Part shown: positions 41,410 through 61,096 of the stretch, piece after piece | Position numbering within the stretch: position 1 is the first letter of the stretch | Layout: each line of letters begins with the position of its first letter | DNA from: Sphingomonas morindae | Lineage (GTDB): Bacteria > Pseudomonadota > Alphaproteobacteria > Sphingomonadales > Sphingomonadaceae | Direction of reading: 5' to 3' | Length of the DNA stretch: 64,000 nt | NCBI RefSeq assembly: GCF_023822065.1 | Contig: NZ_CP084930.1 | Location: forward strand, 3,178,001-3,242,000 | The notes under the pieces: generated by a model | Told to the model about the DNA's origin: nothing | Seen by the model: only the letters and a program-made list of their open reading frames with translations | Database searches by the model: none | Translations under genes and position numbers: made by a program

Positions 41410-42636
41410 ATGAGAAGCTTTACAATTAAGCGGCCATACAGGACAATGGATCAGTCATCACGCGATCGCTATGTTGATAATGTTTTGGAGAGGCTTATCA
41501 TGTCGGATGAAGTCGCATCGCTTCTAAAAAGTCTCAGCTTGGTGACGGTCCCGGACGATGAGGTTAGCCCAGTCGTGCGCAACGTCATAGACGAGTTTAA
41601 GTCCTCAAAGTCATTTCTTTGGCGAATATATGGATCTAAAAAAGGGAGCAGCCCAATATTCCTTGTGGCCGACTCTCCTGCTTTCCAGGCGGCGGCTTCA
41701 TCACTAAAAAAATGTGATGTTATCATCATATTCTCAGGAGTCGAGCCAATACTGGATAGTATATGCAGTGCTCTGCTGTCGAGTAAATCTCTGTTTCCGG
41801 CTATGGGTCCCGTGCCAGACACGGTTTCTGAGTCAATCTATTCACCATCAGACTGTGTCGAAAAGGTTTACTTTCCCAGCGCCCAGCTTTCCGGAGACAG
41901 GAAAGTTCTCAAGGACAAGCTTGTGTTTCTCATTTTGTATTGCATGCTTGCCCACGAAACGACACACATAATGAATGGTCATCTTGACCTGTTTCAGGCG
42001 AGGTCCGGTGAGCGCTGCTTGATGGAGTTTGGTCCTTCGAGCAAAAACGTGACAAGCTTGGAACGGCAAACGCTTGAGTGGGATGCAGATGTCGGCGCAG
42101 CGGAGATGATGCTCCGCTTTGCTCTTGATCCCGAGATTACCACCGTGTCCGGACGATCCAAATGGACCATCAAGCCTCTGGGCCGCTTCGGCGATGCCGA
42201 TACAAGCATCCATATGGCTTTGGCCGCAACCACAATCTTGGCGCTTGTACTAACGATGTCCAAAGGCTCAGAAGAGTCTTATGGTGACGACCATTCTCAC
42301 CCTCATGGCGTACATCGTGGGCATCACGCCCACGTCGCGCTCGAACACTTTCTTAGCTTCAGGACCGGATTCAACCGGCGGGATAGCAGCGACCAAAGAC
42401 TTTTCAATAGCGTCATAGAAGCGTGGTATCAGGTATTCTATCAATATTTGGATGAAAGTTTTTCTCCAGCCTGGTCTGTGGATGGTCTGAGACGCGCAGC
42501 TGGCAGATTCGAAGAGTATAAGAAACAATGGAGCATTCTGCATCCAGATCTCCAAGCTCATAGTCGCGGTGTAACAATAGCGCCCGCCTCTCCGCAGGTT
42601 CATCCTGCGCATCCGCAATCAGGGATACTCGGCTAA
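41410..42636 (+). CDS. HExxH zinc-metallopeptidase-like cargo protein
   Basis: 408 residues, not recognised as a named family. A zincin signature AHETTHIMNGH places HExxH at His182-His186, and LEWDADVGAAEMM offers Glu223 as a third ligand, an M48-like spacing. A hydrophobic stretch (MALAATTILALVLTM, about 260-275) and a His-rich segment (HSHPHGVHRGHHAH) follow. The gene is clearly more AT-rich than its neighbours and uses rarer codons, indicating recent transfer. It converges on gpD (17-bp gap). The start could also be ATG 41446. A role as defence, toxin or host-range cargo is plausible but unproven. Confidence 0.75.
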   Translation: MRSFTIKRPYRTMDQSSRDRYVDNVLERLIMSDEVASLLKSLSLVTVPDDEVSPVVRNVIDEFKSSKSFLWRIYGSKKGSSPIFLVADSPAFQAAASSLKKCDVIIIFSGVEPILDSICSALLSSKSLFPAMGPVPDTVSESIYSPSDCVEKVYFPSAQLSGDRKVLKDKLVFLILYCMLAHETTHIMNGHLDLFQARSGERCLMEFGPSSKNVTSLERQTLEWDADVGAAEMMLRFALDPEITTVSGRSKWTIKPLGRFGDADTSIHMALAATTILALVLTMSKGSEESYGDDHSHPHGVHRGHHAHVALEHFLSFRTGFNRRDSSDQRLFNSVIEAWYQVFYQYLDESFSPAWSVDGLRRAAGRFEEYKKQWSILHPDLQAHSRGVTIAPASPQVHPAHPQSGILG

Positions 42637-42653
42637 AGCCCGCGATCTGTCGC

Positions 42654-43661
42654 CTACGACACCCCCTCCATCTCCAGCGTCGTCAGCAGCGCGCCGCCTT
42701 CCGCCAGCATGTGGACCGCGCGCGTGATGAGCCATGGTCGCGCGTCGATCTCGGGGCGGAAGCCGCGCGGCGTCACCCGCTGTTCGGGCGCGAGCTCGGG
42801 GCGGCCGAGCGCCAGGTCGAAGCGGAGCGTGCGGGTCGCGCGGGCGAGCCGGGCATGCTCGGCCTCGGCGGCGGCGCGGGCCTCGGCCTCGGAGGCGTGA
42901 ACGCGGGCGAGCCGCTTGCGGCGCCCCTCCCCGCCCGCGTGGACGAGATGGCGTCGCGCGGCGCCGAGATCGTGCCAGGCGGCGGTGACGCCGGTCACCG
43001 CCTCCTTCCGCTCGATCGTCAAGCCGTAACGATCGCCATCGCTCCGCCGGATCGTCATCGAAGGCAGCGCCTGGCCGGTGGCGGTGACGCCCGCGCTCGT
43101 GGGCGCCAGGATCAGCGCGCCATGCTTGATCGTCGCGACCGCGTCGTGCGCGCGGCCGAGGCGACGGAGCAGCGCCATGTCGCTCTCGCGCGATTGCGCC
43201 ACGATCGAGACGGGCACGCCGGCGAGCGACGCGGCGCAGCGCGGGGTGAGCCCGTTCCGGCCGGCGATGTCGGCCACCACCTGGCCGAGCGTCGTCGCGC
43301 GCCAGCTCGTCTCGCGCCGGGTGGTCAGCGCGCCGGTCATGTCGGCCGCGCGCGCGCGGACGATCAGCTGGTCGGGCGGCCCGCCATGCTCGAGCGTGTC
43401 GATCACGAAGCGGCCCTTCTCGACCAGGCCGGCGGTGACGCCGCCGCCGCCGCGCGCCCAGCCCAGCTGGAGCGTGATCGTGGCGCCGATCGGCGGCAGC
43501 GCCAGCCCATGGTCGCTGTCGTCGAGCGTGATCTCCAGCGTGTCCGCCTCCTCGCCCCGCGCCTCGGTAAGGCTGAGCGCCGACAGGCGCGGCCGGATCT
43601 TGGGGCTCACATCCTTGCCGTCGATGGTCAGCCGGAAGTCAGGCAGGGGCACGATGCTCAT
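42654..43661 (-). CDS. D: phage late control protein D (tail)
   Basis: 335-residue gpD family protein, the tail hub/baseplate component homologous to T4 gp27-type hubs. It begins IVPLPDFRLTIDGKDVSPKIRPRLSALSLTE, the typical opening, and ends with WLITRAVHMLAEGGALLTTLEME. The ATG overlaps the gpU stop (ATGA). It is the last gene of the V-W-FI-FII-U-D late operon. Confidence 0.92.
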   Translation of the reverse strand: MSIVPLPDFRLTIDGKDVSPKIRPRLSALSLTEARGEEADTLEITLDDSDHGLALPPIGATITLQLGWARGGGGVTAGLVEKGRFVIDTLEHGGPPDQLIVRARAADMTGALTTRRETSWRATTLGQVVADIAGRNGLTPRCAASLAGVPVSIVAQSRESDMALLRRLGRAHDAVATIKHGALILAPTSAGVTATGQALPSMTIRRSDGDRYGLTIERKEAVTGVTAAWHDLGAARRHLVHAGGEGRRKRLARVHASEAEARAAAEAEHARLARATRTLRFDLALGRPELAPEQRVTPRGFRPEIDARPWLITRAVHMLAEGGALLTTLEMEGVS

Positions 43662-44053
43662 CGCGGCGCCCTTCCGTCCGTCACGCGCGCGAGGTCGATC
43701 GAGAAGTCGATGCGGCGCGGCGTGCCATCGGGCCAGAAGTCGGTATGGCGCTCGTCGAGGCGCTCGAGGACGAAGTCGCCATAGACAGTGCCGGCGGCGC
43801 AGACGAGCGGCGCCGCCTCGCCCTGATCGGCCATCGCGCGCAGCGTGTCGAGCGACACGCGGCCATCGGCGATCGCCTGATAGACAGCACCGCTGAGCGT
43901 AATGGTGTCGTCGCCTGGTCCCACGAACTGCACCGCGTCCCGCGCACCGACGCGCGGGGTGCGCGCGAAGCGCCACTCGGAGCGGCGTTGCAGCTCATCA
44001 TAGGCGAGCGTCGCCAGCTCGAAGGCGAACAGGCCGAGCGAGAGCAGCGCCAT
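43658..44053 (-). CDS. U: phage tail protein U
   Basis: 131-residue gpU family tail-terminator/assembly protein. MALLSLGLFAFELATLAYDELQRR, VGPGDDTITLSGAVY and DGTPRRIDFSIDLARV are diagnostic. It overlaps D downstream by 4 bp and the major tail tube gene upstream by 1 bp (TGATG). In P2, genes E and T lie between FII and U; here they are absent. Confidence 0.92.
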   Translation of the reverse strand: MALLSLGLFAFELATLAYDELQRRSEWRFARTPRVGARDAVQFVGPGDDTITLSGAVYQAIADGRVSLDTLRAMADQGEAAPLVCAAGTVYGDFVLERLDERHTDFWPDGTPRRIDFSIDLARVTDGRAPR

Positions 44054-44547
44054 CAGATGCCGAGATTGGCGCGGTGCGCGGCGAGGAGATCGACGCCGTT
44101 GACCGTCAGCACCATGTTGATCGGATCGATCTCGATCACGGGCACGCCGTTCCACTCGAGGCGATAGTAGGAGAGCGTCGTCTTGACCTTGAACGCGCCC
44201 AGCTCGCCGGGCTTGCTCTCGCCGCCGTCGATCTCCTCGTGCAGCCCGCGCGCGTAGACTTCGATGCCGTCCGCCCGGCCGGCCTGCTCGTAGGAGCCGG
44301 CGAAGCGCAGCGTGGCGCTGGTGCCATATTGCCGAAGCACCTGGAGGATGGGGCCCGGATAGCCATGCTCGAGCACGAATTCGTCGCCCATGCCCAGGTC
44401 GATCGGCACCGCGCCGTCCATGCCGGCGCCGCGCCATTTCTCGATCTTGCGGCTGAGCTTGGGCAGCGTGATCGCGCTCGCCTCGCCGATATAGGCGCGG
44501 CCCTCGTTGAACAGCATCATGTGCTTGAGGATGCGGGGATAGGCCAT
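44053..44547 (-). CDS. FII: phage major tail tube protein FII
   Basis: 164-residue inner tube protein of contractile P2-type tails. It opens with AYPRILKHMMLFNEGRAYIGEA, and KLSRKIEKWRGAGMDGAVPIDLGMG is the conserved core. It lies 32 bp after the sheath gene and directly abuts gpU, where E and T would be expected. Confidence 0.94.
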   Translation of the reverse strand: MAYPRILKHMMLFNEGRAYIGEASAITLPKLSRKIEKWRGAGMDGAVPIDLGMGDEFVLEHGYPGPILQVLRQYGTSATLRFAGSYEQAGRADGIEVYARGLHEEIDGGESKPGELGAFKVKTTLSYYRLEWNGVPVIEIDPINMVLTVNGVDLLAAHRANLGI

Positions 44548-44579
44548 GGAGGATCTCCGGTTGGATGGGCGCGGGCGGA

Positions 44580-45740
44580 TCAGCTCAGGCCGGCGGCGAA
44601 ATCGGCGAAATAGCTGTCGGTGATGCGCTGGCTGATGCTCAGCGCCTCGAGCGGCGGCACCGGCGTATAGTCATAATCCAGCACCAGCTTGCCGGCGGAG
44701 AGCGCGGCCACCGGATTCTTGTCCGCGTCGAACCAGCATCGGCCGCCGATCAGCGCGCCCTCGCGCTTCATGTCGCGCAAAAAGCCGTTGATGCTCTCGA
44801 CGATGTCCTTGGCGAGGCTGGGCCGCAGCGGCTTGTCGATGCCCCAGAGCAGGCCCTGGCCGATCGTCTCGAGCAGCACATGCGCGGTGCGCGTCGCGCT
44901 TTCGAAGGCGAAGAGCGGATCGGACGAACAGGTGCGGTTGCCCCAGAAGCGATAGCCCGAGCCGGTATGGACGAGCGCGGTCACATCGGCGGCGTTGAGG
45001 ATGCCGGCCTCGGTCTCGCCGCTGGTCAGATCCCATTGGATCGGCCGGGTCATGCCGGTGACGCCGGTGACATCGACATTGGAGAGCGTCTTGAAGAAGC
45101 CGGCCTCCTGGTCGATCCGCGCGCGCAGGCCGAGCGCCCGCGCCACGGCATGGCTGGTCACCGTCGCGCCTGTGCTGTCGGTCATCAGGAAATCGGGGAA
45201 GAGGAGCATCAGCTCGCGCGCGCCGAACTGGCGGCGATAGGCCGCCGCCGCCGCGACATCGACGCCGACCGCCGACGCATAGGCCATGGCCTTGAGCTTC
45301 TGCGCCACGACGACCAGGGCCGCGACCACCGCCTGCGTGTCGAGGCCGGGCGCGCCGAGGATCTTGGGCTTGACCGTCAGGCGCGCCTGCGCGGCGAGCA
45401 GCGCCTGCATCCCCGTCTTCTGGCCCTGGGCGGTGGTGGCGCCGATCACGTTCGCGCTGGTCTCGGCCGGCGTCGCGCCCTCGGCCACGCGCACCAGCAC
45501 GATCACGGGCCGCGCCTGGTCGGCGATCGCGCGCAGCACGTTCCTGGCGGTGCCGCCCGCGCCGAGCCGGTCGATCGCCGCCTCGGCGTCCGTCACCAGC
45601 ACGGGCGTGTCGAGCGGAAAGGCGGTCTCGTCCGCCCTGGGCGCGGTGACGACGAGGCCGATGATGGCGGTCGAGGCGACGGTGAAGCGGCGCGTGCCGT
45701 CCGAAATCTCGGTGGCCTTGATGCCGTGGAAATCGGCCAT
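44580..45740 (-). CDS. FI: phage contractile tail sheath protein FI
   Basis: 386-residue P2 FI-type sheath protein. DFHGIKATEISDGTRRFTVASTAIIGLV is the N-terminal insertion strand region, and FWGNRTCSSDPLFAFESATRTAHVL lies in the conserved C-terminal half. The length matches P2 FI (about 396). The ATG is followed upstream by GGAAGGAT. It sits between gpW and FII. Confidence 0.95.
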   Translation of the reverse strand: MADFHGIKATEISDGTRRFTVASTAIIGLVVTAPRADETAFPLDTPVLVTDAEAAIDRLGAGGTARNVLRAIADQARPVIVLVRVAEGATPAETSANVIGATTAQGQKTGMQALLAAQARLTVKPKILGAPGLDTQAVVAALVVVAQKLKAMAYASAVGVDVAAAAAYRRQFGARELMLLFPDFLMTDSTGATVTSHAVARALGLRARIDQEAGFFKTLSNVDVTGVTGMTRPIQWDLTSGETEAGILNAADVTALVHTGSGYRFWGNRTCSSDPLFAFESATRTAHVLLETIGQGLLWGIDKPLRPSLAKDIVESINGFLRDMKREGALIGGRCWFDADKNPVAALSAGKLVLDYDYTPVPPLEALSISQRITDSYFADFAAGLS

Positions 45741-45751
45741 GATCCTTCCTT

Positions 45752-46102
45752 TCAGGCGGGGCGGAGCGGAATGGTGAGGCGCGCGGGGGCGGCGGGCCCG
45801 GCCAGATCGCGTCGCCGGCCCTCGATGGTGAGCGCGGTCGCCCCCCGCGCGTCGCTGGCGAGCCGGAAGCCGGTCACCCGCACGCGCGGCTCCCAGCGCG
45901 CGATCGCCACCGCCGAGGCGGCGAACAGCCGCAGCCGGCCGAGATCGTTCATCGGCTGGTCGATCAGATCGGGCAGCAGCGAGCCATAGTCGCGCACGCC
46001 CACGCGGCTGCCGAGCGGGGTGAGCAATATGTCGCCGATCGATTGCGCGAGATGCGCCTCGCCATCGAGCGGCTTGCCAGTGTCGCGCGACATGCCGCGC
46101 AT
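45752..46102 (-). CDS. W: baseplate protein W (gp25 family)
   Basis: 116-residue GPW/gp25 baseplate wedge protein. HLAQSIGDILLTPLGSRVGVRDYGSLLPDLID is the family core. It overlaps gpV by 1 bp (TGATG) and is followed by the sheath gene 11 bp later. In P2 it is followed by J and I, but here J and I lie 13 kb away. Confidence 0.94.
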   Translation of the reverse strand: MRGMSRDTGKPLDGEAHLAQSIGDILLTPLGSRVGVRDYGSLLPDLIDQPMNDLGRLRLFAASAVAIARWEPRVRVTGFRLASDARGATALTIEGRRRDLAGPAAPARLTIPLRPA

Positions 46103-46644
46103 CAGGCCGCCACCGGCGTGCCGGACATGGCGCCGCCCGCCTGCACCTTGTCGTGGACATGGTTCTTCAGGCTGACGCCGGCGGTCTTCACGTCCTCGGT
46201 AGCCGTGACGGTGCCGTTGACGGTGACAGGCCCGTCGATGGTGAGGCCGCCGGGCGCCACGATGTGCGCCGTCGCGTCTGGGACAAGCCGCGCCACCAGC
46301 GCGTGCCCGTCGGCGTCATAGGAGAGGATCGCGCCGTCGCCGAAGCGGAGCAGCATCAGGCCGGCGACGCTGGCCGGCGCGGGGTTGGCGTCCGAGTAGA
46401 TCCCGCACAGCGCGACGCCGGCGGCGATGTCGCCCTCGGGGCAGAGGAGCAGCACCTGCTCGCCCACGCTCGGCGGCGACCAGAGCCGCGCATCGCCGGC
46501 GCGGCCGGCGATCCACGGCACGGCGGCGGTCTCCAGCTCGCCCACCGCCACCGTGCAGCGCGCGGCGGCGAGATCGACCGACGCGATCGTGCCGAAGCGC
46601 ACCACGTCGCCGATCAGCCGCTGGATATCCGGAGTGCCGCTCAT
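46102..46644 (-). CDS. V: baseplate assembly protein V (spike)
   Basis: 180-residue gpV central spike protein. The N-terminal OB-like domain contains VRFGTIASVDLAAARCTVAVGELETAAVPWIAGRAGD; the C-terminal beta-helix ends ASGVSLKNHVHDKVQAGG-like repeats (KNHVHDKVQAGGAMSGTP), with the His-containing apex. It is the first gene of the V-to-D late operon, preceded by a 23-bp palindrome. Confidence 0.92.
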   Translation of the reverse strand: MSGTPDIQRLIGDVVRFGTIASVDLAAARCTVAVGELETAAVPWIAGRAGDARLWSPPSVGEQVLLLCPEGDIAAGVALCGIYSDANPAPASVAGLMLLRFGDGAILSYDADGHALVARLVPDATAHIVAPGGLTIDGPVTVNGTVTATEDVKTAGVSLKNHVHDKVQAGGAMSGTPVAA

Positions 46645-46690
46645 GATGCGGGACCATGGCGGGCGCCGCGCCGGGCCGCGCGGGCGCTGG

Positions 46691-46713
46691 CTTGTGGAGA
46701 CGCGCTCTACAAG
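46691..46713. promoter_or_regulatory. late-operon palindrome 1 (CTTGT-N13-ACAAG)
   Basis: A 23-bp dyad centred at 46702, 58 bp upstream of gpV; the arms extend outward (GCGCTGG / CTAGCGC at 46684-46720). Toward gpV, exactly 31 bp separate it from the octamer CCATGGTC (46652-46659). It is a candidate binding site for the Ogr-like activator at a leftward late promoter. P2 sites are TGT-N12-ACA, one base shorter. Confidence 0.65.
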
Positions 46714-46803
46714 CTAGCGCTTTAAAGCCTTGCACAGCGTCTTTCACGATGCGCCTCCTTTGCCCTTTCGCGAAGGAGAGCAAAGAAGAATGGAGGGGAT
46801 CGC

Positions 46804-47721
46804 GTGGGTCTGCCGCTCATCCGCGTCTGCGCTCTGCTGATGACGATCAGCGTTGGTCCAGCCGCCGCAGCCATATCGCCCGCTCAAGCGCCCGACTTGG
46901 CGTCGCGGACGATAATGGTCGAGAATATGCCGGTCTTCATCCATGTCCCTCCGGCGGCGAGCCGACAGCCTTCCCCATTGGTCCTTCTTTTGCATGGAAG
47001 CCATGGCCGAGGAGCGAGCACTTTTGACGGCAGTAAATTGGGGAGTGTTGCGGATCGCCATGGCTTTATCGTCGCGGCGCCGGATGGCGGGATCGCTTTG
47101 CGGGATGGTTACGCTTGGAACGTGCCGTATGTGCCGACAGCGACCGGCCAAATGCCTTCCGAGAAGGACAGGAACGATGTCGCGTTCTTGATCAAGCTTA
47201 TCGATGTGCTGGTTTCGAAGGGACTGGTCGATCCTGGCCGCGTGTATGTGACAGGCATTTCTGGCGGCGGAAGGATGGCCTCCTGGCTCGGCTGTGTGGA
47301 GGCAGAGCGGTTCGCCGCGATCGCGCCGGTCGTTGGCCTGAGGGCGGGAGCGCCGTCTCCCGGCAATGCGGGTCGGCCGGATCCGAGGACGTGCAATCCA
47401 AAGAGACCTGTCCCCATCATCGCCTTTGCCGGAGATGCGGACACCACGAACCCCATCAACGGCGGCGGGGCTCCTTATTGGCAATATTCGATGAAGCAAA
47501 GTGAGATCCGTTGGGCTCAGCTTGACGGATGCCAAAGGCCCATAAGGCGGCGTTGGATCTCGAAAGACGTTTATGAGGAGGGCTTCGACCACTGCCTTGG
47601 CGAGGCTAAGGTGATCGCTCGGATTACGAGAGGAGGAACGCACAAATGGCTGGCAGACAATGAGGCCATGTGGAACTTCTTCAGCAAATACAGCGCTGCG
47701 CGAGCGCCTTCAGCTCCCTGA
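46804..47721 (+). CDS. secreted alpha/beta-hydrolase esterase (PHB depolymerase/LpqC-like)
   Basis: 305 residues with an N-terminal signal peptide (cut near PAAAA-IS). The catalytic serine is in VYVTGISGGGRMASWL (GxSxG), the oxyanion region is LVLLLHGSHGRGASTFD, the Asp is in IIAFAGDADTTNPING and the His in RITRGGTHKWL. This is the plan of polyhydroxybutyrate depolymerase/feruloyl-esterase-like secreted esterases. GTG start with GGAGGGG 5 bp upstream. It is oriented against all surrounding phage late genes and is probably lysogenic-conversion cargo. Confidence 0.85.
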   Translation: MGLPLIRVCALLMTISVGPAAAAISPAQAPDLASRTIMVENMPVFIHVPPAASRQPSPLVLLLHGSHGRGASTFDGSKLGSVADRHGFIVAAPDGGIALRDGYAWNVPYVPTATGQMPSEKDRNDVAFLIKLIDVLVSKGLVDPGRVYVTGISGGGRMASWLGCVEAERFAAIAPVVGLRAGAPSPGNAGRPDPRTCNPKRPVPIIAFAGDADTTNPINGGGAPYWQYSMKQSEIRWAQLDGCQRPIRRRWISKDVYEEGFDHCLGEAKVIARITRGGTHKWLADNEAMWNFFSKYSAARAPSAP

Positions 47722-48012: not shown

Positions 48013-48013
48013 T

Positions 48014-48280
48014 CTAAAGCCCCACGGCCTTGCGCAGCGCGGCGTTGATGCGCGTCTGCCAGCCTGGGCCCTCCGCGCGAAAGCGCTCGAGCACGTCTTG
48101 GTCGACGCGCAGCGTCACCGACTGTTTGGCCGTGCCCCTGGGCCGCCCGCGCGGCTTGCCGAAGGCCGCGAGCACGGCTTCGGGCAGCACCTCGCTCCCC
48201 GGTCGGGCACGCGCGAAATCCTCCTCGGTCCACTCCGGATTTTCCTCATCGAACACAATGGGCGGCTTCTCAGACCCCAT
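48014..48280 (-). CDS. brnA: BrnA antitoxin
   Basis: 88-residue antitoxin. An acidic N-terminal toxin-binding segment (IVFDEENPEWTEEDFARARP) and a C-terminal ribbon-helix-helix (KQSVTLRVDQDVLERFRAEGPGWQTRINAALRKAVG) are typical of BrnA. It neutralises BrnT and autorepresses the operon. ATG 48280 has AAGGAG upstream and overlaps the brnT stop by 11 bp; an upstream in-frame start is less likely. Confidence 0.92.
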   Translation of the reverse strand: MGSEKPPIVFDEENPEWTEEDFARARPGSEVLPEAVLAAFGKPRGRPRGTAKQSVTLRVDQDVLERFRAEGPGWQTRINAALRKAVGL

Positions 48281-48533
48281 GACGACGCAACTCCTTCTCA
48301 TGCGCGCGCCGAAAGCTGATCGCCCGGATCACCCCGGCGCGCAGGGTGAAGACGAGGCACCGGCCTTCGCCATCGATGCGCCCGAAGGCGCGGAAGCGGA
48401 CTTCGCCATAGTCCGCGCGATCGTCGACCAGAAGGGCCGCCCCGCGCAGATCCAGCTCCTCCGCCTCGGCCAGCGACAGGCCATGCTTGGCTTGGTTGAT
48501 GGCATCCTTGGCCGGATCGAAGACGATGTCCAT
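48270..48533 (-). CDS. brnT: BrnT ribonuclease toxin
   Basis: 87-residue RelE-fold toxin of the BrnT/BrnA type II system, which inhibits growth by mRNA cleavage. FDPAKDAINQAKHGLSLAEAEEL is the family signature, and the C-terminal RAISFRRAHEKELRRHG has the expected basic residues. As usual for BrnTA the toxin gene comes first. It lies between the esterase and the SGNH operon, where it could stabilise the prophage. Confidence 0.93.
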   Translation of the reverse strand: MDIVFDPAKDAINQAKHGLSLAEAEELDLRGAALLVDDRADYGEVRFRAFGRIDGEGRCLVFTLRAGVIRAISFRRAHEKELRRHGV

Positions 48534-48540
48534 GGCTTTC

Positions 48541-48587
48541 TTGTAACTACAGAAAGAGGCGCGGGCGAGCTAGTTTTTGTACCTACG
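48541..48587. promoter_or_regulatory. candidate BrnA operator, paired direct repeats
   Basis: TTGTAACTAC (48541-48550) and TTGTACCTAC (48577-48586) are repeated 36 bp apart immediately upstream of brnT. The placement and the RHH antitoxin make them likely autoregulatory sites; binding is inferred. Confidence 0.5.
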
Positions 48588-48605
48588 TAAAGACACTGGG
48601 ACCGC

Positions 48606-51670: not shown

Positions 51671-51693
51671 CTTGTAGAGACGTTCTCCACAAG
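51671..51693. promoter_or_regulatory. late-operon palindrome 2 (CTTGT-N13-ACAAG)
   Basis: Nearly identical to palindrome 1 and again followed, 31 bp toward the late gene, by CCATGGTC (51632-51639). Centre at 51682, 83 bp upstream of the operon's first gene. Candidate Ogr-like activator site. Confidence 0.65.
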
Positions 51694-52049: not shown

Positions 52050-53828
52050 GTGAGACTGAGTAGGATTGTCATAAAGAACTTAAGAGCAATCCAAGCGCTC
52101 GATATCCCGATCACCGATGCGGCGACCGTCGTTATCGGCGAAAACAATGCGGGCAAGTCCACACTCCTACACGGCATCCGCCTCTGTCTCGACGTTACCC
52201 TGTCCTCCGCCTTCCGTTCCTTGAGCAAGGAGGATGTACACTGCGCCGTAGACCAGAGCGCGCCATTCCAAGTACTCGTTGCTGTCGAGTTCACAGGATT
52301 TGCCGGCAATGAAAACGAAGAGGCACTGCTACACGGCACGCAAATTGGTACGGATAGAGCGAGGCTCTTCTATCGGTTTCGCCCGAAGCGTCTCGTGCGT
52401 GAACTAATACTCTCCGGTTACCTTGACAGGCCACTTACACTTGACGACTTCGGCTGGGAATTGTTCGGTGGCGGCAACCCAGAGATCGACGTTGCGAGCA
52501 TTCAGTGGGATCACGAGAACGGTGACATAGGCGCCTGCTCCGTCGGTCTTCAAATTCTGCAGTCCTTCCTCGTCGTGTTCCTTCCGGCGCTGCGTGACGT
52601 CGAAGCCGATCTGCAGCATTTTCGGCGTTCACCTTTGATGAAGCTGGTCGAAGCAAGCGAAATGGACCTCGCCGAACAGGCGGCGATCGTCGAGGCGGTC
52701 AAGGCCGTAAACGCTCAAATAGAGACATCTACACCTATCAACGATCTAGCAGGTTATATTGATAGCGCCCTAAAGGAGATCACCGGACCCGCCTTCGCAC
52801 TTGACGTTAAGCTCGGCCTCTCCGCTCCCACCTTCCAATCGATTGTACGCAATCTAATCGTGCTGCTCTCAGGCGCGCTGGCGCAAAACGTCGAACCCCG
52901 CCGTAATGGTCTCGGCCTAAACAACGTTCTCTTCATAGCCATGCTGATCGAGCAGTTCCGCAAGCGTGCCGCTAGCGGCAACGCTGCAGGGGAGCTCATC
53001 CTCATCGAGGAACCAGAGGCCCATCTGCATCCGCAACTGCAGTCGACCCTGATGGACGCGTTGCGGCAGCTCCCCTTCCAAGTCATCGCCACCACCCACA
53101 GCACCCAGGTAACGGCGGGCGCGTCGCTCTCCTCCTTCGCCGTCATGTCCCAGCAGCCGAACGGTATCTCTGTGGCTGCGGTTCCGAGTCGAGCGTCCGG
53201 CCTCACGCCAAATGACCGAAAGGACCTGGAGAGATACCTAGATGCGACCAAGTCGAACCTCTTGTTCGCCCGCCGCGTCATGCTGGTCGAAGGACCGGCT
53301 GAGTTGCTCCTAATCCCACCAATGGTGAAGCAGATCCTAGGCATTGATCTCGAGCGCGAGGGCATATCAGTCGTTGCCATACATGGGACGCACTTCGGGC
53401 CCTTCGCCAGAATGTTTGCCGTGGACTGTCTCCCCAAGCGCTGCGCCATCGTGGCCGACGCGGATCGCGTTCCCGGTATCGGTGATCCTGACGACGATGT
53501 CGTGCCGCCGGAGAACCTCGTCGCTCTTGAGGGAGAATTCGTGAAGGCGTTCGTAGGCGCGACTACCTTCGAGCGAGAGATTACTATGGACGGGAACCTG
53601 ACCATGCTGGCTGCGGTCGCTGGTGATCTAGGCGCACCCAGAATACAAAGTCATCTTGACGATGCGAAGTTTTTAGGCACGACAGAAGAGCTGAAGGAAA
53701 AAGTGCTTCGGACCGCCGTTCGTTTCGGAAAAGCTCGGTTTGCGCAAGCCGCAGCCCGCCACGCCGAGAAGGCCCAAAAGCTCCCTCCCTATATTGAGCA
53801 GGCCGTATATTGGCTGAGACAATGGTAA
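52050..53828 (+). CDS. gajA: GajA-like OLD-family ATPase-nuclease (Gabija)
   Basis: 592-residue two-domain protein. The ABC-type ATPase has Walker A VIGENNAGKSTLL (about residues 28-40) and Walker B/D-loop ILIEEPEAHLHPQLQ plus IATTHSTQV. The C-terminal TOPRIM nuclease has VMLVEGPAELLLIP (Glu near 412) and AIVADADRV (DxD near 469). With the next gene it forms Gabija, in which GajA is the nucleotide-sensing DNA nicking enzyme. GTG 52050 is used, with AAAGAGAG upstream. GC content is lower than the phage genes. The overlap with gajB (7 bp) shows an operon. Confidence 0.87.
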   Translation: MRLSRIVIKNLRAIQALDIPITDAATVVIGENNAGKSTLLHGIRLCLDVTLSSAFRSLSKEDVHCAVDQSAPFQVLVAVEFTGFAGNENEEALLHGTQIGTDRARLFYRFRPKRLVRELILSGYLDRPLTLDDFGWELFGGGNPEIDVASIQWDHENGDIGACSVGLQILQSFLVVFLPALRDVEADLQHFRRSPLMKLVEASEMDLAEQAAIVEAVKAVNAQIETSTPINDLAGYIDSALKEITGPAFALDVKLGLSAPTFQSIVRNLIVLLSGALAQNVEPRRNGLGLNNVLFIAMLIEQFRKRAASGNAAGELILIEEPEAHLHPQLQSTLMDALRQLPFQVIATTHSTQVTAGASLSSFAVMSQQPNGISVAAVPSRASGLTPNDRKDLERYLDATKSNLLFARRVMLVEGPAELLLIPPMVKQILGIDLEREGISVVAIHGTHFGPFARMFAVDCLPKRCAIVADADRVPGIGDPDDDVVPPENLVALEGEFVKAFVGATTFEREITMDGNLTMLAAVAGDLGAPRIQSHLDDAKFLGTTEELKEKVLRTAVRFGKARFAQAAARHAEKAQKLPPYIEQAVYWLRQW

Positions 53829-55588
53829 AACTCCTTACCGACGAACAGCAGGAGGCGGTCGATTGGCAGGAGAGCCTGCTACTCACCGCTTGCCCCGGCA
53901 GCGGCAAAACACGCACACTTATTGCCAAGCTGGTGGCAGAGATCGAATGCGTGCGCGGGACCCCGCGTTCGATCTGCTGCATCACCTACACCAACACTGC
54001 CGTCCAGGAGATTGAGCAACGCGCGAGCGAACAGCTCCAAGCTGGGGACGAACGCTACATCTACGTCTCAACGATTCACTCATTCTGCCTGCACTCGATT
54101 CTACGCCCGTTCGCTTGGCTCCGACCCGACTTGGGTGGCGCTAGGAGGATCCTGACCCGGGACAGTCCAGACTTCGAGGCAATCTGCCAGTACGCCGCCG
54201 CGCAGGTGAACTTGCTTCAGCTAAATCAAGCCGATTACGAGGCATTCGAAAGCCTTAGCGTCGACACCAACGGTCGGATCATTGGGGTCGCGCTGAAGAA
54301 CGACGCGGTGTGCCGTGCCGCCCCTTATTTCTGGGCCCGGTGTGCTCAACTTGGATACATAGATTTCGGAAACATCGTCTATGGTGCCTACCTCCTCCTA
54401 CGCGAACATCCAGGAATCGCCCTGTCACTTTGCGCGCGGCACCCGTGGTTCCTTATCGACGAGTTTCAGGACACGACCGAACTTCAGGTTGAAATGCTGA
54501 AGCTGCTCCACGCCACGCGAAGATCGAAAATTTTCGCCGTGGGAGACCTGTACCAGTCGATCTACGGCTTCACCGGAGCCCGCCCGGAACTCGTTGCACC
54601 CTTCGGCGTCCACATTGGAGCTCGATCCGATCTGAGCCTCTCGCTGAATTTCCGCTCCAGCAGGCGCATCGTAAACCACGCCGAGCGGCTATTCCCGCGC
54701 CTCCCGCCCATGACGGCGGCGGGATCGACGCGCGACTACCCGGTCGACCCCATCCTAATTCGCGGAGGGACGGTATTCGAGGCGATCACCGAACATTTCC
54801 TGCCGGCTCTCGAAGCGCAGCACATCGCGCTTGGTGACGCGACGATCCTGGCCAAGGATTGGTTTTCCTTAATTACCCTAGCGAGGGAACTCAGAGACTT
54901 CGGCACGCCCATCGTGGGACCGGGAGCCAGGCCATACAAGCGCTCGCGCCTTTTCGCACAACTGGCCGAGCAGCTTTGCGGCGCCATTGTCGAGCCGACC
55001 GGCGACACGACCCGACAACTCGAGCGAGCGCTGTTCCACACCGTGCAGGATGCTACCGGTCAAGCCCGGCTCGGACTGTTCGGATTCGCGGGCCGTCAGG
55101 TCCTGGTCCGACTCCAGCGCGAAGCGCTACGTCTAGCAAACCTCGGGCACGGGGCAATCGCCTGGCTGGACGCTATGTCCCAAGCCACTGGAGATATCCT
55201 CCTACGTGCGGAGTATGTCGACCGCATCCAGTCCGGCCTCTTTTATGCCTCGGTGCAGGAGATGAAGGCCGACATGATCCGGCAGAAAGTCGACATCTTC
55301 AATCTCACGATCGAGCACCTTGGCTTGTTTGCAAGTCCGACGCGAGCGCTTAGATTGTCGACCATTCACTATGCAAAAGGGCGCGAATACTCGGCAGTCG
55401 CTGTAATAGGTCTGCGGACGGGGTATTTTCCATTCAAATACAGCGATGACGTGATCGCTGAAAAGCGTCAGTTCTACGTCGCGATTACAAGAGCGGAAAA
55501 ACTGCTGATGTACGTCGCCGAGCGGGACCGATGGGGTAACGCTCCTAGTCCATTTCTAGGACCCACCGGGCTAAACGTCCTTAGATGA
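53822..55588 (+). CDS. gajB: GajB-like UvrD/Rep-family helicase (Gabija)
   Basis: 588-residue SF1A helicase. Motif I is LTACPGSGKTRTLIAK (near residue 20), motif II FLIDEFQDTTEL (near 212), motif III VGDLYQSIYGFTGA, and motifs V/VI LSTIHYAKGREYSAVAVIGL and FYVAITRAEKLLMYVA. In Gabija, GajB is thought to sense DNA ends or help activate GajA. ATG 53822 overlaps the gajA stop. It is longer than the Bacillus GajB (about 490). It converges on the dam gene of the phage. Confidence 0.87.
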   Translation: MVKLLTDEQQEAVDWQESLLLTACPGSGKTRTLIAKLVAEIECVRGTPRSICCITYTNTAVQEIEQRASEQLQAGDERYIYVSTIHSFCLHSILRPFAWLRPDLGGARRILTRDSPDFEAICQYAAAQVNLLQLNQADYEAFESLSVDTNGRIIGVALKNDAVCRAAPYFWARCAQLGYIDFGNIVYGAYLLLREHPGIALSLCARHPWFLIDEFQDTTELQVEMLKLLHATRRSKIFAVGDLYQSIYGFTGARPELVAPFGVHIGARSDLSLSLNFRSSRRIVNHAERLFPRLPPMTAAGSTRDYPVDPILIRGGTVFEAITEHFLPALEAQHIALGDATILAKDWFSLITLARELRDFGTPIVGPGARPYKRSRLFAQLAEQLCGAIVEPTGDTTRQLERALFHTVQDATGQARLGLFGFAGRQVLVRLQREALRLANLGHGAIAWLDAMSQATGDILLRAEYVDRIQSGLFYASVQEMKADMIRQKVDIFNLTIEHLGLFASPTRALRLSTIHYAKGREYSAVAVIGLRTGYFPFKYSDDVIAEKRQFYVAITRAEKLLMYVAERDRWGNAPSPFLGPTGLNVLR

Positions 55589-55782
55589 TCGGCCAGTGAG
55601 TGACCTGACAATAGCTTCCAGTATAAACCTTTCCACACCGACTATCCGAAGCCAGCACGCCTTTCCAATCCCTTGCTTCTATCAAGCCAAGTGCCGGTAG
55701 CCGTCATAGTCGAGCGTCCTTAAAAGCGGAGCCGAACGACCGGCTCTGGTCGGTATCGGCTCGCCGGCTTTGCATCGGCGAT
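55589..55782. other. 194-bp gap between gajB and dam
   Basis: I see no gene and no convincing terminator hairpin in this gap, which separates the convergent gajB and dam genes. Confidence 0.4.
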
Positions 55783-56607: not shown

Positions 56608-56654
56608 GGCGTGCCTCCGGACGGGGGGCGAAGAGGCTCCGGCGGGGCCCGTGC

Positions 56655-56873
56655 TCAGCGCGCGGGCGTCGCGGCGATCGCGCCGACCGCGATCTTCACC
56701 GCCACGCCGGCCGCGACGGCGGCGACACGCAGCGCGGTCGCCTCCGCGTCATAGGCGCCGGCCTCGGTCATGCAGGCATTGACCGGGCGGACATGCACGA
56801 TCTCGCCCTGGGTGAAGGTGACGGGCACGCTGCGGGTGACGGGATCGAAGCCGCCGATCCGGGTCTTCATCAT
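56655..56873 (-). CDS. small phage tail-associated protein
   Basis: 72 residues (71 if the second ATG is used). MKTRIGGFDPVTRSVPVTFTQGEIVHVRPVNACMTEAGAYD looks like a small beta domain, followed by an Ala/Val-rich hydrophobic tail. The double ATGATG follows GAGGAGAGGG. It lies immediately downstream of the tail fibre gene, where small chaperone or accessory proteins occur. Function unknown. Confidence 0.65.
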   Translation of the reverse strand: MMKTRIGGFDPVTRSVPVTFTQGEIVHVRPVNACMTEAGAYDAEATALRVAAVAAGVAVKIAVGAIAATPAR

Positions 56874-56882
56874 TCCCTCTCC

Positions 56883-58769
56883 TCAATAGCCGATCGCTAG
56901 CCAGATGAAGGCGGTGCCCCGCCACGCGGCCTGGCCGGTCGACATGGCGGAGTAGATCGTGACCTCCTCGCGCGTCTGCCCGCCGGCGCCGTGAAAGGCG
57001 GCGGGCGGGCCGCCGGCGGCGTTCGAGACCAGGACTTGGAAGCAGGCATTGGGAAAGGCGCGCGGGAAGCGGATCCGCCGGGCGCCGCTATCGTCCGAAT
57101 GCCCGGCGCTCCCCCATTGCAGGATCAGCCCGCTCGGCAGCATCTGCCAGCCGTCGGGGCCCAGGCCGGCGGCGAAGGTCTCGCGCAGCGCATAGTCGCC
57201 GCCCTGGCGGCCATCGAGCAGATCGGCGTCGAGCCCCGATCCCGCGCCGTCATTGCCGGCATGCCAGAGGGGCTGGCCGGCATAGCGGAGCGTGTGATCG
57301 TCCGGCGCGCAGCCCAGCGCGTGCGGCGCGGTGCCGAAGGCGACATAGCCCGCGCGCGGATCGCCCTGCGCGCGGATGCCCACCGTCCCCGCCATGTTGA
57401 CGTCGCCGATCCAGGCGTCGTCGCCCACGGCGATGCCCCGGCCATCGCCATTGGCGCGGACGCGCAGCCGGGTGGCGGAGACCTCGCCTTCCTCGTCGAT
57501 CGACACGACATCGGCGGAGGCCCGGTTCTGGAACCGCACCGTGCCCGTGATCCGCGCATAGGTGGCGCCGCCGCGGGCGAAATAGAAGCGCTCGACGCCG
57601 TCGTCGGATCGCACCCAGTCACCGGTGGCGGCGCGCAGGAAATCGCGGGACTGGAAGCCATCGAGCAGATCGGCGTCGAGCCCCGAGCCCGCGCCGTCAT
57701 TGCCGGCATCCCAGACGCGCAAGCCCGCGCGCATCATCTGGCCGGAGACGGCGAGATCGGTCGCGACCGAGGTGAGGCTCGCGGCGATCGCGAGCTTGGT
57801 GGTCCCGCCGCCCACGAAATTGAAGCTGTCGGCCGCGCGATTATAGACGAGCGCGTCGCCGAGATCGAAGAAGATCTGCGGATTGGGGCCGCCCATGTCC
57901 AGGTAGAAATTGGGATCGCGCCGGATCGCGCCGGCGAAGCTGTTGGCCTGGTCGCGGCGCGCGAAGGCCGCGCTGTCGATCCCGTCGAGCAGATCGGCGT
58001 CGAGCCCCGAGCCCGCGCCGTCATTGCCCGAATGCCAGGCGAGCGCGTCGCGGATGGTGAAGCGGTTGCCGGCGAGATCATAGGCCCAGAGCCCGCCCGT
58101 CAGCGAATCATAGGCGCCGATCGCGCGGCCATTGCCGTAGACATAGCTCACCCGCCCGCCCGCGCCCTCGAACTCGAGGCGCTTCTCGTCGAGATCGACG
58201 CGCTCGAAGCGCAGCGAGCCGGCGAGGCTGTCGCCCGCGCGGCGGACGAAGCGGCGCAGATTGGCGGGGGTGACGGCGCGGGTGGCGAGCGCGCGCGCCT
58301 CGGCCTCGGCGTCGGTCGCCAGCGCCACCACCCCGGCGCGCTCGGTGGTGGCGGGCGGATCGAGGAAATTGGTGTCGCCGAAGCGCAGCGCGCGCGCGTC
58401 GATATCGGCGAAGCGCAGGTCGATCGCGATCAGCCCCATCGTGGCGGCCGTCTTCGCCAGGATCGGCTCGGCCTGGCCATACAGGGCGAACAGCGTGCCA
58501 TCGTCGAGATACAGGGCGATGGCGCGCAGCGTATAGGCGTCCGCGCTCTCGTCGCGCGCGATGATGTGGATCGTGTCCGCCGCCACCGCCTCGCCCGCCA
58601 GCGCGGCGCTGCGCTTGAACTCGCCGGCGAGCGCGGTGTCGCTCGGCTTGGGGCTGATCGCGGCGGCGGAATAGCCGATCTGCGCGATCTGGACGGCGGC
58701 GGTGCCGCCCCGGCGCGCGTCGACCAGCGCCGCGCGGCCCTTCTCCGTGACGATGAGGGGGAAGGCCAT
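56883..58769 (-). CDS. H: phage tail fibre protein H-like
   Basis: 628 residues. The N-terminus AFPLIVTEKGRAALVDARRGG is the P2-like tail-collar/fibre attachment domain (DUF3751 type). The shaft contains three copies of GNDGAGSGLDADLLDG (about residues 245, 353 and 505). The tip LPSGLILQWGSAGHSDDSGARRIRFPRAFPN resembles the gp53-like receptor-binding domain, ending FIWLAIGY. It follows gpI by 9 bp. It would determine host specificity. Confidence 0.9.
   Translation of the reverse strand: MAFPLIVTEKGRAALVDARRGGTAAVQIAQIGYSAAAISPKPSDTALAGEFKRSAALAGEAVAADTIHIIARDESADAYTLRAIALYLDDGTLFALYGQAEPILAKTAATMGLIAIDLRFADIDARALRFGDTNFLDPPATTERAGVVALATDAEAEARALATRAVTPANLRRFVRRAGDSLAGSLRFERVDLDEKRLEFEGAGGRVSYVYGNGRAIGAYDSLTGGLWAYDLAGNRFTIRDALAWHSGNDGAGSGLDADLLDGIDSAAFARRDQANSFAGAIRRDPNFYLDMGGPNPQIFFDLGDALVYNRAADSFNFVGGGTTKLAIAASLTSVATDLAVSGQMMRAGLRVWDAGNDGAGSGLDADLLDGFQSRDFLRAATGDWVRSDDGVERFYFARGGATYARITGTVRFQNRASADVVSIDEEGEVSATRLRVRANGDGRGIAVGDDAWIGDVNMAGTVGIRAQGDPRAGYVAFGTAPHALGCAPDDHTLRYAGQPLWHAGNDGAGSGLDADLLDGRQGGDYALRETFAAGLGPDGWQMLPSGLILQWGSAGHSDDSGARRIRFPRAFPNACFQVLVSNAAGGPPAAFHGAGGQTREEVTIYSAMSTGQAAWRGTAFIWLAIGY
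57211..58037. repeat. three 55-bp near-identical direct repeats in the fibre gene
   Basis: Copies at about 57211-57267, 57659-57713 and 57983-58037 encode the GNDGAGSGLDADLLDG repeats of the fibre shaft. They differ by only a few bases, more alike than protein conservation alone would require, and could recombine to shorten or shuffle the fibre. Confidence 0.75.
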
Positions 58770-58778
58770 TCAATCCTC

Positions 58779-59330
58779 TCAGGCCGGGGCGGGCGCGGCG
58801 GCGAGCGCCAACCGCGCGTGGATGACGGGCCGGGCGACGCCGATCAGGCCGAGCGCGCCGGTCGCGGCGGCGGACAGGGTGAAGGTGAAATGCGCGCGCA
58901 GCGGCTTGGCGCGGGCGATATCGTCGATCACCTGGTCCAGCTCGCCGGCGCTCGGCGCCGCCCCCAGCCCGGCCAGGCTCAGCACCAGCGCGAAGGTGTG
59001 CGGCGCGCCCGGCGGCGTCTGCTGCCACCATTCGCGCAGCGCCACCGCGCCGCCATAGCTCGCCACCAGATCGCGGATCGCCTGGATCGTACCCTTGCGG
59101 CGCTGGATGGGAATGGCGCGGCGGATGCGCGCGCGCTTCACCGCCTCGGGCCAATCGGGCGACCAGGCGTCGATCGAGAGCGCATAGGCGAGATAGGGCA
59201 GCAGCGCGGCCGGGCAGCCGTCCGCGTTCCAGAGCGGCTCGATCGGCGTCGGCACGTCCGAAAGCCGCGCCATCGCCGCCTCCAGCGCGCGCTCCAGCGG
59301 CGTGGCGTTGCGCGGCAGCAGCGAGATCAT
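58779..59330 (-). CDS. I: phage tail protein I
   Basis: 183-residue gpI family baseplate wedge protein. LPRNATPLERALEAAMARLSDVPTPIEPLWNADGCPAALLPYLAYALSIDAW shows the conserved 'N-x-x-x-cP...LA...' region of P2 gpI. The ATG overlaps the gpJ stop by 4 bp; gpH follows 9 bp later. Confidence 0.93.
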   Translation of the reverse strand: MISLLPRNATPLERALEAAMARLSDVPTPIEPLWNADGCPAALLPYLAYALSIDAWSPDWPEAVKRARIRRAIPIQRRKGTIQAIRDLVASYGGAVALREWWQQTPPGAPHTFALVLSLAGLGAAPSAGELDQVIDDIARAKPLRAHFTFTLSAAATGALGLIGVARPVIHARLALAAAPAPA

Positions 59331-60226
59331 GCCGCGATCCCGCCATGGCTCAGCGTCACGCCGGTGCAGAAGCCCGCCTGGGTGGCATCCAGCGCCAGAT
59401 CGGCGGCCGGCGCGTCGAGCCGCACATTCTGCACGCCCGGGCCATGCAGCGCCGCGAATAGCGCCGAGCGCGTGAGATCGCGGCCGAGCCGCTGGCCCTC
59501 GGCGAGCAGCGCGTCGAGCCGCGCGCGCGCGGCGGCGAGCACGATCTGGCTGTCCGGCCCGACATAGGTGACGAGGCTGGCGGTGATGGCGAAGGGGATG
59601 ATGGTGGCGCTCCGCACCGTGACATGATCGGTCAGCGGGCGGCGCGTCTCGGCGGTGAGATAGTCCGCCACGCGCGCCACCAGCGCGGGCGCGGCGGCGC
59701 CGTCGCCGCCGCGCGCCAGGATGGTGACGAGCACCTCGCCCGGCGCCGGGCTGGTGGCGCTGGCGTCCAGCACCTCGGGCGCGGCGGTGAGCGCGTGGTA
59801 GATATAGGCCCCGCTCGGCCCCGCCACCGAGAAGCTTTCGGGCGCCAGGATCATCCGTCGCCGCAACGCGTCGTCGCTCTCCAGCACCGCCGGCCGGCCG
59901 CGCGCCGGATCCGCCGGCGCGAGGACCAGCCGCGCGACGCCGAGCAGCGCCGCCAGATTGTCGAGATCGGCGCCGGCGGCATAGGCCGGCATGCAGGCGC
60001 GCGCGGCGTCGTTGACGCGGGCGCGGATGAGCAGCTCGCGATAGGCGCACAGCTCGAGCAGCTTGACGGCGGGATCGCTCTCCACCGTCGCGTCGAAGTC
60101 CGGCACCAGCTCGACCAGGCGCGCGCGCAGCTGCGCGAGGATGGTTTCGAAATCGAGCGGCTCGACGATCGCCGGCGCGGGCAGGCGCGAGAGATCGACG
60201 GCGGTGAAGGTGGCGGTATCGACCAT
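59327..60226 (-). CDS. J: baseplate assembly protein J
   Basis: 299-residue gpJ family wedge protein. It opens FTAVDLSRLPAPAIVEPLDFETILAQLRARLVELVPDFD and has GADLDNLAALLGVARLVLAPADP, both diagnostic. It is the first gene of the J-I-H late operon; AAGGG lies 9 bp before the ATG and late palindrome 3 about 49 bp upstream. Confidence 0.93.
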   Translation of the reverse strand: MVDTATFTAVDLSRLPAPAIVEPLDFETILAQLRARLVELVPDFDATVESDPAVKLLELCAYRELLIRARVNDAARACMPAYAAGADLDNLAALLGVARLVLAPADPARGRPAVLESDDALRRRMILAPESFSVAGPSGAYIYHALTAAPEVLDASATSPAPGEVLVTILARGGDGAAAPALVARVADYLTAETRRPLTDHVTVRSATIIPFAITASLVTYVGPDSQIVLAAARARLDALLAEGQRLGRDLTRSALFAALHGPGVQNVRLDAPAADLALDATQAGFCTGVTLSHGGIAA

Positions 60227-60274
60227 GGCCGCGCCCTTGTCGGGCCGGGCGCTGGGGGCGCGCTAGGGCGCTCG

Positions 60275-60297
60275 CTTGTGGAGACGTTCTCTACAAG
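60275..60297. promoter_or_regulatory. late-operon palindrome 3 (CTTGT-N13-ACAAG)
   Basis: Third copy, centred at 60286, 60 bp upstream of gpJ. The core is nearly the same as copy 2, but the 31-bp-spaced CCATGGTC octamer of copies 1 and 2 is not conserved at that distance. Confidence 0.65.
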
Positions 60298-60340
60298 CTG
60301 CGGTAAAGATGCGTTCGAAACAAACCGAGGGAGCGTGATC

Positions 60341-61096
60341 GTGGGCGGCCAGTCTGTATGGCACGTATGTCTGACATGGACGTGCGCGATCGATACGGCA
60401 GATCAGTGGCAGACGTTGATCAGCGGCATCTTGGCTCTCGTGGCCGCAAGGCTGGCTTTAAGCATATCGCGAGAACAAGTGTCGGTCGCCAGAGCGCAAA
60501 TGACCGAGGATCGGCAACAGAGGCAACGCGATCGCTCGGGCAGGCTAAGGGCTGCAAGGGCCTCTCTGCCAAACAGCTTAAGCGATATATGTTGGTACGC
60601 AAGTAGCTACGCTTCTGGCCTTAATCGTCGTTGGCCGACAGCAGCATCGCTTTACGGAGCGAATGAGACTGCGGAAACGCACGATATCATTTTTTCAGAT
60701 ATGCCGCACTTTCCCTCCCATGCCGCAGCTGTTCTGGAGCGAATACTTGAGCTTGCAGATGATGAGGGCGTTTGCACGCGGATCGAGAGCCTGCTGCGAG
60801 AAGTCCAGGTTCTCACAGTGCGAACTGCGCCTTTACGATCGGGAGAGAGCATATCCCTCCATGCTTTGGCAACATATATTCTTCAGGCGGCTGCCGTATA
60901 TGCGAGAGCGGAGTCTCTCTTTGGTTATGCTCGGAACAGCGTAGCGACGATAAATCCAGATGAAGATCTTTGGCCTGGTGTTCATAGAGCATTGCTAACT
61001 TCAAACGTGCACACAGATTATGTTCGCACGTTGATGAAATCTGAGAGAGACGCTGGTTTTACGCCAGGAGAAGCTGACACGAAGTCTCTTGTGTGA
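60341..61096 (+). CDS. unknown one-TM cargo protein
   Basis: 251 residues, no recognised family. An N-terminal region WQTLISGILALVAARLALS (about 24-42) is a likely TM anchor of the 'WQTLIAG' type, followed by a charged helix REQVSVARAQMTEDRQQRQRDRSGR and a helical cytosolic domain (HAAAVLERILELADDEGVCTRIESLLREVQ). GTG 60341 has GAGGGAG upstream. It is AT-richer than its neighbours, faces the opposite way from the late genes, and converges on gpS (13-bp gap). Probably a moron; its role (exclusion, defence or conversion) is not known. Confidence 0.65.
   Translation: MGGQSVWHVCLTWTCAIDTADQWQTLISGILALVAARLALSISREQVSVARAQMTEDRQQRQRDRSGRLRAARASLPNSLSDICWYASSYASGLNRRWPTAASLYGANETAETHDIIFSDMPHFPSHAAAVLERILELADDEGVCTRIESLLREVQVLTVRTAPLRSGESISLHALATYILQAAAVYARAESLFGYARNSVATINPDEDLWPGVHRALLTSNVHTDYVRTLMKSERDAGFTPGEADTKSLV

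What the first reader, a model, noticed from the sequence alone, without database searches (positions are those of the whole stretch)
41410..61096. Cargo genes are inserted at every visible late-operon boundary, facing against the late genes
The late genes form blocks X..S, J..Dam, the 51.6-48.6 kb operon, and V..D. At each block boundary there is rightward cargo: the TM protein (60.3-61.1), Gabija (52.0-55.6), the esterase with leftward BrnTA (46.8-48.5) and the metallopeptidase (41.4-42.6). Each cargo unit converges on the end of one late operon and begins just beyond the palindrome of the next. This suggests a modular layout in which operon ends are tolerated insertion ports insulated from late transcription.
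Basis: partly seen in the sequence, partly recalled or inferred. Interest (0 to 1): 0.8.

Follow-up and report, generated by a model that had tools for sequence, protein, structure and literature searches.

The report
P2-type cargo slots between late operons
This P2-like prophage carries foreign genes (including the Gabija anti-phage system) in the gaps between its blocks of virion genes; relatives show the same gaps either empty or filled with other genes, an arrangement already present in the classic phage P2.

Summary
Real, and ordinary in kind. The window holds a 42-kb P2-like prophage (47-bp tRNA-Gly repeats at 33679 and 75720). Cargo lies at the late-operon boundaries as described, but a palindrome adjoins three of the four sites, not the metallopeptidase. 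The palindrome looks like an Ogr-type late-activator site. Across 98 loci (window included) the S-J gap is 58-200 bp in 26 of 77 and 448-8513 bp in 51 of 77; gaps of 300 bp or more occur at 14 of 689 junctions inside operons. S-J cargo differs between phages (97 clusters of 104 ORFs). So operon ends are variable ports. Two claims fail: cargo does not face against the late genes as a rule (S-J ORFs 54 with, 60 against), and terminator-like sites are at chance level. Phage P2's own record shows the layout: orf30 between S and V, fun(Z) between G and FI, both reversed and upstream of the activator site. New here: counts across many hosts, cargo families in different ports, an extra activator site that splits one port, and a displaced E-T tail module.

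The parts
33679..33725 (+). attL: 3' end of tRNA-Gly; 47-bp direct repeat, other copy at 75720-75766 (beyond the window)
38738..38995 (-). Ogr/Delta-like late activator, CX2CX22CX4C
   Evidence: PF04606 24.4 bits, just under the cutoff 26.3; motif read
41410..42636 (+). cargo 4: HExxH metallopeptidase-like protein, in the gap after D; no palindrome beside it
   Evidence: ORF and motif; no Pfam, PADLOC or PHROG hit
42654..46644 (-). late operon V-W-FI-FII-U-D (lacks E and T)
46691..46713 (.). Ogr-type palindrome upstream of V
46804..47721 (+). cargo 3: esterase (PF10503) with a hydrophobic N-terminus, probably exported
48014..48533 (-). cargo 3: BrnA antitoxin and BrnT toxin, same direction as late genes
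   Evidence: PF14384, PF04365
48606..51602 (-). extra late-type operon o138-o225-GDSL-like esterase
   Evidence: GDSL Pfam scores below cutoff; PHROG 8480 esterase 64.6 bits; own palindrome
51671..51693 (.). Ogr-type palindrome upstream of the GDSL operon (extra copy)
52050..55588 (+). cargo 2: Gabija GajA and GajB
   Evidence: PADLOC 861 and 760 bits
55783..60226 (-). late operon J-I-H-h72-Dam
60275..60297 (.). Ogr-type palindrome upstream of J
60341..61096 (+). cargo 1: 251-aa protein with one hydrophobic segment
   Evidence: hydropathy; no family hit
61110..62302 (-). end of the O..S late operon (R, S)
   Evidence: PF06891, PF05069

Best explanation
A P2-type (Peduoviridae) prophage whose late genes are read in Ogr-activated blocks (O..S, J..Dam, an extra GDSL operon, V..D). 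The gap between the stop of one block and the activator site of the next is a tolerated insertion port: DNA there interrupts neither an operon nor the promoter next to the first gene. Cargo (Gabija, BrnTA, esterase, peptidase, membrane protein) is gained and lost there and replaced by other genes in relatives, as orf30 and fun(Z) sit in phage P2. Shown: port positions, empty and filled states, variety of cargo, the dyad beside J and V whether the slot is filled or not. Inferred: that the dyad binds this phage's Ogr, that cargo is expressed in the lysogen from its own promoters, and that selection against broken operons is what confines cargo to the ports.
For: S-J gap bimodal: 58-200 bp in 26, 448-8513 bp in 51 of 77; filled slots have lower GC than J in 51 of 51. 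Gap before V (from Dam or h72) 300 bp or more in 15 of 32. Gaps of 300 bp or more inside operons: 14 of 689; Fisher p 7e-53 for 66 of 109 against these. A dyad matching 7 or 8 of 8 arm positions, 58-78 bp before the start codon, lies upstream of J in 54 of 98 and V in 39 of 83, against 23 of 544 at seven internal genes (0-10% each). J and V dyads of one genome resemble each other (10.2 of 16 arm bases against 6.2 between genomes; 0 of 2000 permutations; 46 pairs scoring 6 or more). It is found about equally often with a filled (26 of 51) or empty slot (14 of 26), so cargo lies upstream of it. Sample cargo: SIR2, RT-Toprim, RmrA, EcoRII-C nuclease, acyltransferase, sulfotransferase, chemotaxis receptor. 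P2 has the same layout; 186 and FLC5 have both ports empty, Smp131 the S-J port.
Against: The D-end port has no palindrome. A strong dyad was found for only about half of the J and V starts; it is weak or absent in many Xanthomonas loci, and in P2-order loci the same test found it at V in only 2 of 21 and at J in 5 of 22. Operon boundaries are not ports in every lineage: S-V was empty (75-123 bp) in 7 of 7 P2-order loci with both genes, though filled in P2 itself. A few gaps do lie inside operons (14 of 689). Loci share ancestry, so they are not independent and the Fisher value overstates the evidence. Gene calls inside low-GC cargo are rough: the callers missed the window's own TM gene.
Confidence: 0.87

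Rival explanations
1. Directional insulation: only cargo facing against the late genes is kept, because opposed transcription and terminators shield it from late transcription.
For: In the window four of five cargo units face right, against the late genes; orf30 and fun(Z) of P2 do so too, next to annotated putative terminators; neaT of a P2-like prophage also (PMC3573123, passages). One weak terminator-like site (42598-42583, - strand) lies just past the end of D.
Against: S-J ORFs of relatives: 54 with and 60 against; longest ORF 26 and 23; slot before V 18 with and 12 against. Terminator-like sites in the window are at chance level.
Confidence: 0.08
2. The ports are recombination hot spots made by the repeated activator palindrome (similar short sequences at each operon head), not merely places where insertion is harmless.
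For: Dyads within one genome share arms and lie at the window's ports other than the D end; BrnTA and RelE/HigA families occur at different ports in different phages; the J-I-H and V-W blocks are in a different order from P2.
Against: The D-end port has no palindrome; the repeated stretch is only about 21 bp and imperfect; in P2-order loci the S-V port was empty in 7 of 7.
Confidence: 0.12
3. The cargo consists of independent mobile elements that target these sites.
For: One S-J slot holds an IS-type transposase (L093).
Against: None of the other 19 slot proteins scanned against Pfam matched a transposase or recombinase; S-J ORFs of different loci are mostly unrelated (97 clusters of 104). Flanking repeats were not looked for.
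Confidence: 0.03

Closest known systems
Phage P2 orf30 and fun(Z) (NC_001895)
   Same: Cargo between late operons, reversed, ending close to the upstream operon's putative terminator and lying upstream of the next activator site (orf30 begins 15 bp from it); P2's pV activator site is centred 55.5 nt from the V start codon, much as here.
   Different: Other cargo; fun(Z) begins about 290 bp from the pF site; ports lie at S|J and before V because the J-I-H and V-W blocks are rearranged; one extra activator site here.
Moron positions 1 and 2 of P2-like phages (PMC3573123, passages seen)
   Same: Position 2 (G-FI) is an operon boundary; neaT there is opposed to the tail genes; an acyltransferase of the same Pfam family sits at S-J in L145.
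   Different: The passages seen name 'at least two' positions (A-Q and G-FI); S-J and the D end are not among them.
P2 defence hotspot between A and Q (PMC9122126, passages seen)
   Same: Small locus with high turnover of defence genes in P2-like phages.
   Different: It is next to cos, not between late tail operons.
Smp131 of Stenotrophomonas (PMC3931495, section 8 and passages)
   Same: Order S, J, I, fibre, V, W, FI and putative late promoters PP', PO', PJ', PV'.
   Different: S-J slot empty (86 bp); the parts seen do not discuss cargo ports.

Membership tests
P2-type late-operon morons (Peduoviridae) | P2-like late genes | tested here: met
   R, S, J, I, V, W and sheath families in Pfam
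P2-type late-operon morons (Peduoviridae) | Ogr-type activator with CX2CX22CX4C | tested here: met
   motif present; Pfam score just under cutoff
P2-type late-operon morons (Peduoviridae) | Activator site at operon heads, centred about 55 nt from the start of transcription | tested here: inconclusive
   of the strong dyads found 58-78 bp before the start codon, 47 of 54 (J) and 34 of 39 (V) begin at -71 to -65; starts of transcription not mapped here
P2-type late-operon morons (Peduoviridae) | Cargo variable, empty sites exist | tested here: met
   26 of 77 S-J slots empty, cargo diverse
P2-type late-operon morons (Peduoviridae) | Cargo nonessential for the phage | not testable with these tools
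   needs deletion mutants
P2-type late-operon morons (Peduoviridae) | Own promoter and terminator of the cargo | tested here: inconclusive
   consensus scans at chance level
Gabija | GajA (ATPase with TOPRIM) next to GajB (UvrD-like helicase) | tested here: met
Gabija | Anti-phage activity | not testable with these tools
   needs an assay
BrnTA toxin-antitoxin | Adjacent BrnT and BrnA | tested here: met
   PF04365 and PF14384 above cutoff

The most novel reading that the evidence does not exclude
Ports multiply: a copy of the late-activator site, carried in with a late-expressed cargo operon (GDSL-like esterase), turns one operon boundary into two, each of which then takes in new cargo. The sites of one genome change together, so that each phage lineage has its own late-operator sequence.
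Probability: 0.3. Interest if true: 0.5.

Novelty: new member of a known kind. Interest (0 to 1): 0.36.

Why it matters
It gives a countable rule for where temperate P2-like phages of this lineage keep passenger genes: between Ogr-type operons, upstream of the activator site, rarely inside. That helps find new defence and host-modifying genes by position in sphingomonad and xanthomonad prophages, and it suggests that ports follow operon boundaries when tail modules are rearranged.

Tried and rejected
Terminator insulation: consensus scan at chance. First gene callers missed low-GC cargo; replaced by length-based callers, still rough: the last called no ORF in 2 filled S-J slots and 2 filled V slots. 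Co-evolution of Ogr and its site: among loci with a D match, an Ogr-like motif was seen in the window and 6 relatives (L070, L072, L090, L095, L096, L098), too few to test. Relatives of the displaced tape-measure gene: whole-genome search failed twice; a viral-contig scan gave 3 distant hits (32-35% identity) that were not analysed. A second P2-order scan gave five further loci (L192-L196), not used in the counts. Gabija elsewhere in the family: GajB-like hits in 2 of 396 other genomes at 42% identity (E up to 1e-60), context not examined.

Rows left out before counts: of 50 non-own gpJ places listed were fetched; one search kept the best 80 of 276. Of 136 loci (15 viral, 40, 80, window) 16 duplicates were dropped, leaving 120; 22 with P2 order were set apart (21 by gene position; L066, which had no V match, by hand because W directly precedes J). 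The 98 left are 83 with J before V and 15 without a V match. Twenty-one of the 98 had no S match and were not counted for S-J; only the 32 with V and a Dam or h72 match were counted for the gap before V.
Full report
What is there. The finding lies in a P2-like prophage. A 47-bp repeat of the tRNA-Gly 3' end occurs at 33679 and again at 75720 in window coordinates, about 42 kb apart. Late genes run leftward: R and S, then J-I-H-h72-Dam, then o138-o225-GDSL-like esterase, then V-W-FI-FII-U-D. Between them lie units that are mostly low in GC: a 251-aa protein with one hydrophobic segment, Gabija GajA and GajB (861 and 760 bits), BrnTA (not low in GC) and an esterase, and an HExxH metallopeptidase-like protein without family hits.

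Palindromes. TTGTRGAG-N5-CTCYACAA occurs three times in the window without mismatch, each just upstream of a late operon (46691, 51671, 60275); shuffles give essentially none. A further site with 2 mismatches lies beyond the window, upstream of O and within the longest reading of the opposed P frame. The metallopeptidase has none nearby. The prophage has an Ogr-like protein with the CX2CX22CX4C motif. In relatives a dyad sits 58-78 bp upstream of J (54 of 98) and V (39 of 83) but rarely at the same distance from seven internal genes (23 of 544; FII highest, 8 of 81). In the 22 loci with P2 order the same test finds it at J in 5 of 22 and V in 2 of 21, so it is not sensitive there. The arms vary from genome to genome, yet J and V dyads of one genome agree (10.2 of 16 arm bases against 6.2 between genomes, 46 pairs scoring 6 or more, 0 of 2000 permutations). 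Scanning loci with their own arms finds mainly J, V and O, with a few others. This is what an Ogr operator should look like; binding itself is inferred.

gpJ was used to fetch relatives: 40 regions from unnamed family and order genomes (of 50 places listed), the best 80 of 276 named loci from Sphingomonas, Novosphingobium, Sphingobium, Xanthomonas, Asticcacaulis and others, and 15 viral contigs. After removal of 16 duplicates and 22 loci with P2 order, 98 remain, the window included. The S-J gap is 58-200 bp in 26 and 448-8513 bp in 51 of 77; filled slots have lower GC than J in 51 of 51. The gap before V is 300 bp or more in 15 of 32. Gaps of 300 bp or more inside operons: R-S 1 of 75, J-I 0 of 96, V-W 3 of 82, W-FI 2 of 82, FI-FII 0 of 81, FII-E 1 of 79, E-T 5 of 76, T-U 1 of 62, U-D 1 of 56, together 14 of 689. 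The 104 S-J ORFs of one caller fall into 97 clusters. Twenty-one longer slot proteins were scanned (19 in both libraries, L117 only in PADLOC, L069's GDSL-like protein only in Pfam): among them SIR2, RT-Toprim, RmrA, EcoRII-C nuclease, acyltransferase, sulfotransferase, amidase, chemotaxis receptor, GGDEF-EAL, subtilase and one transposase; 6 of 20 had no Pfam hit, and 6 of 20 had a PADLOC hit. The loci share ancestry, so the p values overstate the evidence.

Same cargo, different ports. BrnA or BrnTA relatives lie after D in L090, L095 and (at the cut end of the stretch) L093, and directly upstream of J in the fragmentary L079, but before V here. RelE/HigA relatives lie at S-J in L071 and after D in L076 but next to Q in this prophage.

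What fails. Orientation: S-J ORFs 54 co-directional and 60 opposed (p = 0.64), longest ORF 26 and 23; before V 18 and 12; an earlier caller gave 52 and 52. Insulation: terminator-like sites 13 against 9.6 (sd 3.2) in shuffles, with one weak candidate just past D, and the TM gene and S converge with 13 bp between their stops. In P2-order loci with both genes, S-V was empty in 7 of 7, so a boundary is not always used.

Known precedent. The P2 record shows S, a putative terminator, orf30 reversed, the pV activator site, V; and G, a putative terminator, fun(Z) reversed, the pF activator site, FI. P2's V start codon is annotated as the start of transcription, 55.5 nt from the activator-site centre. 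Here 47 of 54 strong J dyads and 34 of 39 strong V dyads begin at -71 to -65, which puts their centres 55-60 nt from the start codon (that range follows from the selection). Shine-Dalgarno-like 4-mers are rare before J (4 of 98) and V (7 of 83) and common before FI (78 of 82) and FII (80 of 81), but they are also rare before I, W and S, whose starts adjoin or overlap the gene before. Leaderless late mRNAs, as annotated for P2 V, are therefore possible but not shown. Phages 186 and FLC5 show both ports empty, Smp131 an empty S-J port. Two moron positions in P2-like phages are in print (PMC3573123, passages), a defence hotspot between A and Q (PMC9122126, passages), and Smp131's rearranged operons with PJ' and PV' (PMC3931495, section 8 and passages). 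In the listings of four searches no title or start of abstract describes this rule for sphingomonad phages; that is a limited look at an open-access library.

What differs here. The window has an activator site before the GDSL operon in addition to those at J and V, and Gabija and BrnTA/esterase lie on either side of that operon. Among the relatives scanned, L069 has a similar extra site (3 mismatches) before a GDSL-like gene (32.2 bits, cutoff 32.9), and a few others (such as L120) have an extra site elsewhere. Separately, E and T are missing between FII and U (1 of 76 loci; the other 75 have 2.4-4.0 kb there) and lie instead near the right att site.

Verdict. A confirmed P2-type moron layout with good comparative support; orientation and insulation claims not supported.

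Noticed in passing
window 44053-44056 and L027:9862-13010 (own genome, window coordinates about 71862-75010): The E and T (tape measure) tail genes are absent from their usual place between FII and U and lie near attR at the far right end, without a matching activator palindrome; the only such case among 76 loci. By eye the last part of the T frame looks out of register with relatives (not tested).
   Followed up: partly
upstream of 60226 (J) and 46644 (V): J and V start codons lie about 55-60 nt from the dyad centre and lack Shine-Dalgarno-like sequences across relatives, as for P2 gene V, whose start codon is annotated as the start of transcription; leaderless late mRNAs are possible.
   Followed up: partly
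J and V upstream regions of L069-L188: Late-operator arms differ widely between genomes (TTGTRGAG, TTTGGA, CTCGTT, TTGTCAG) but agree within a genome.
   Followed up: partly
L027:8948-9238 (own genome, right of the window): RelE/HigA toxin-antitoxin pair next to Q; relatives of it occur at other ports in L071 and L076.
   Followed up: partly
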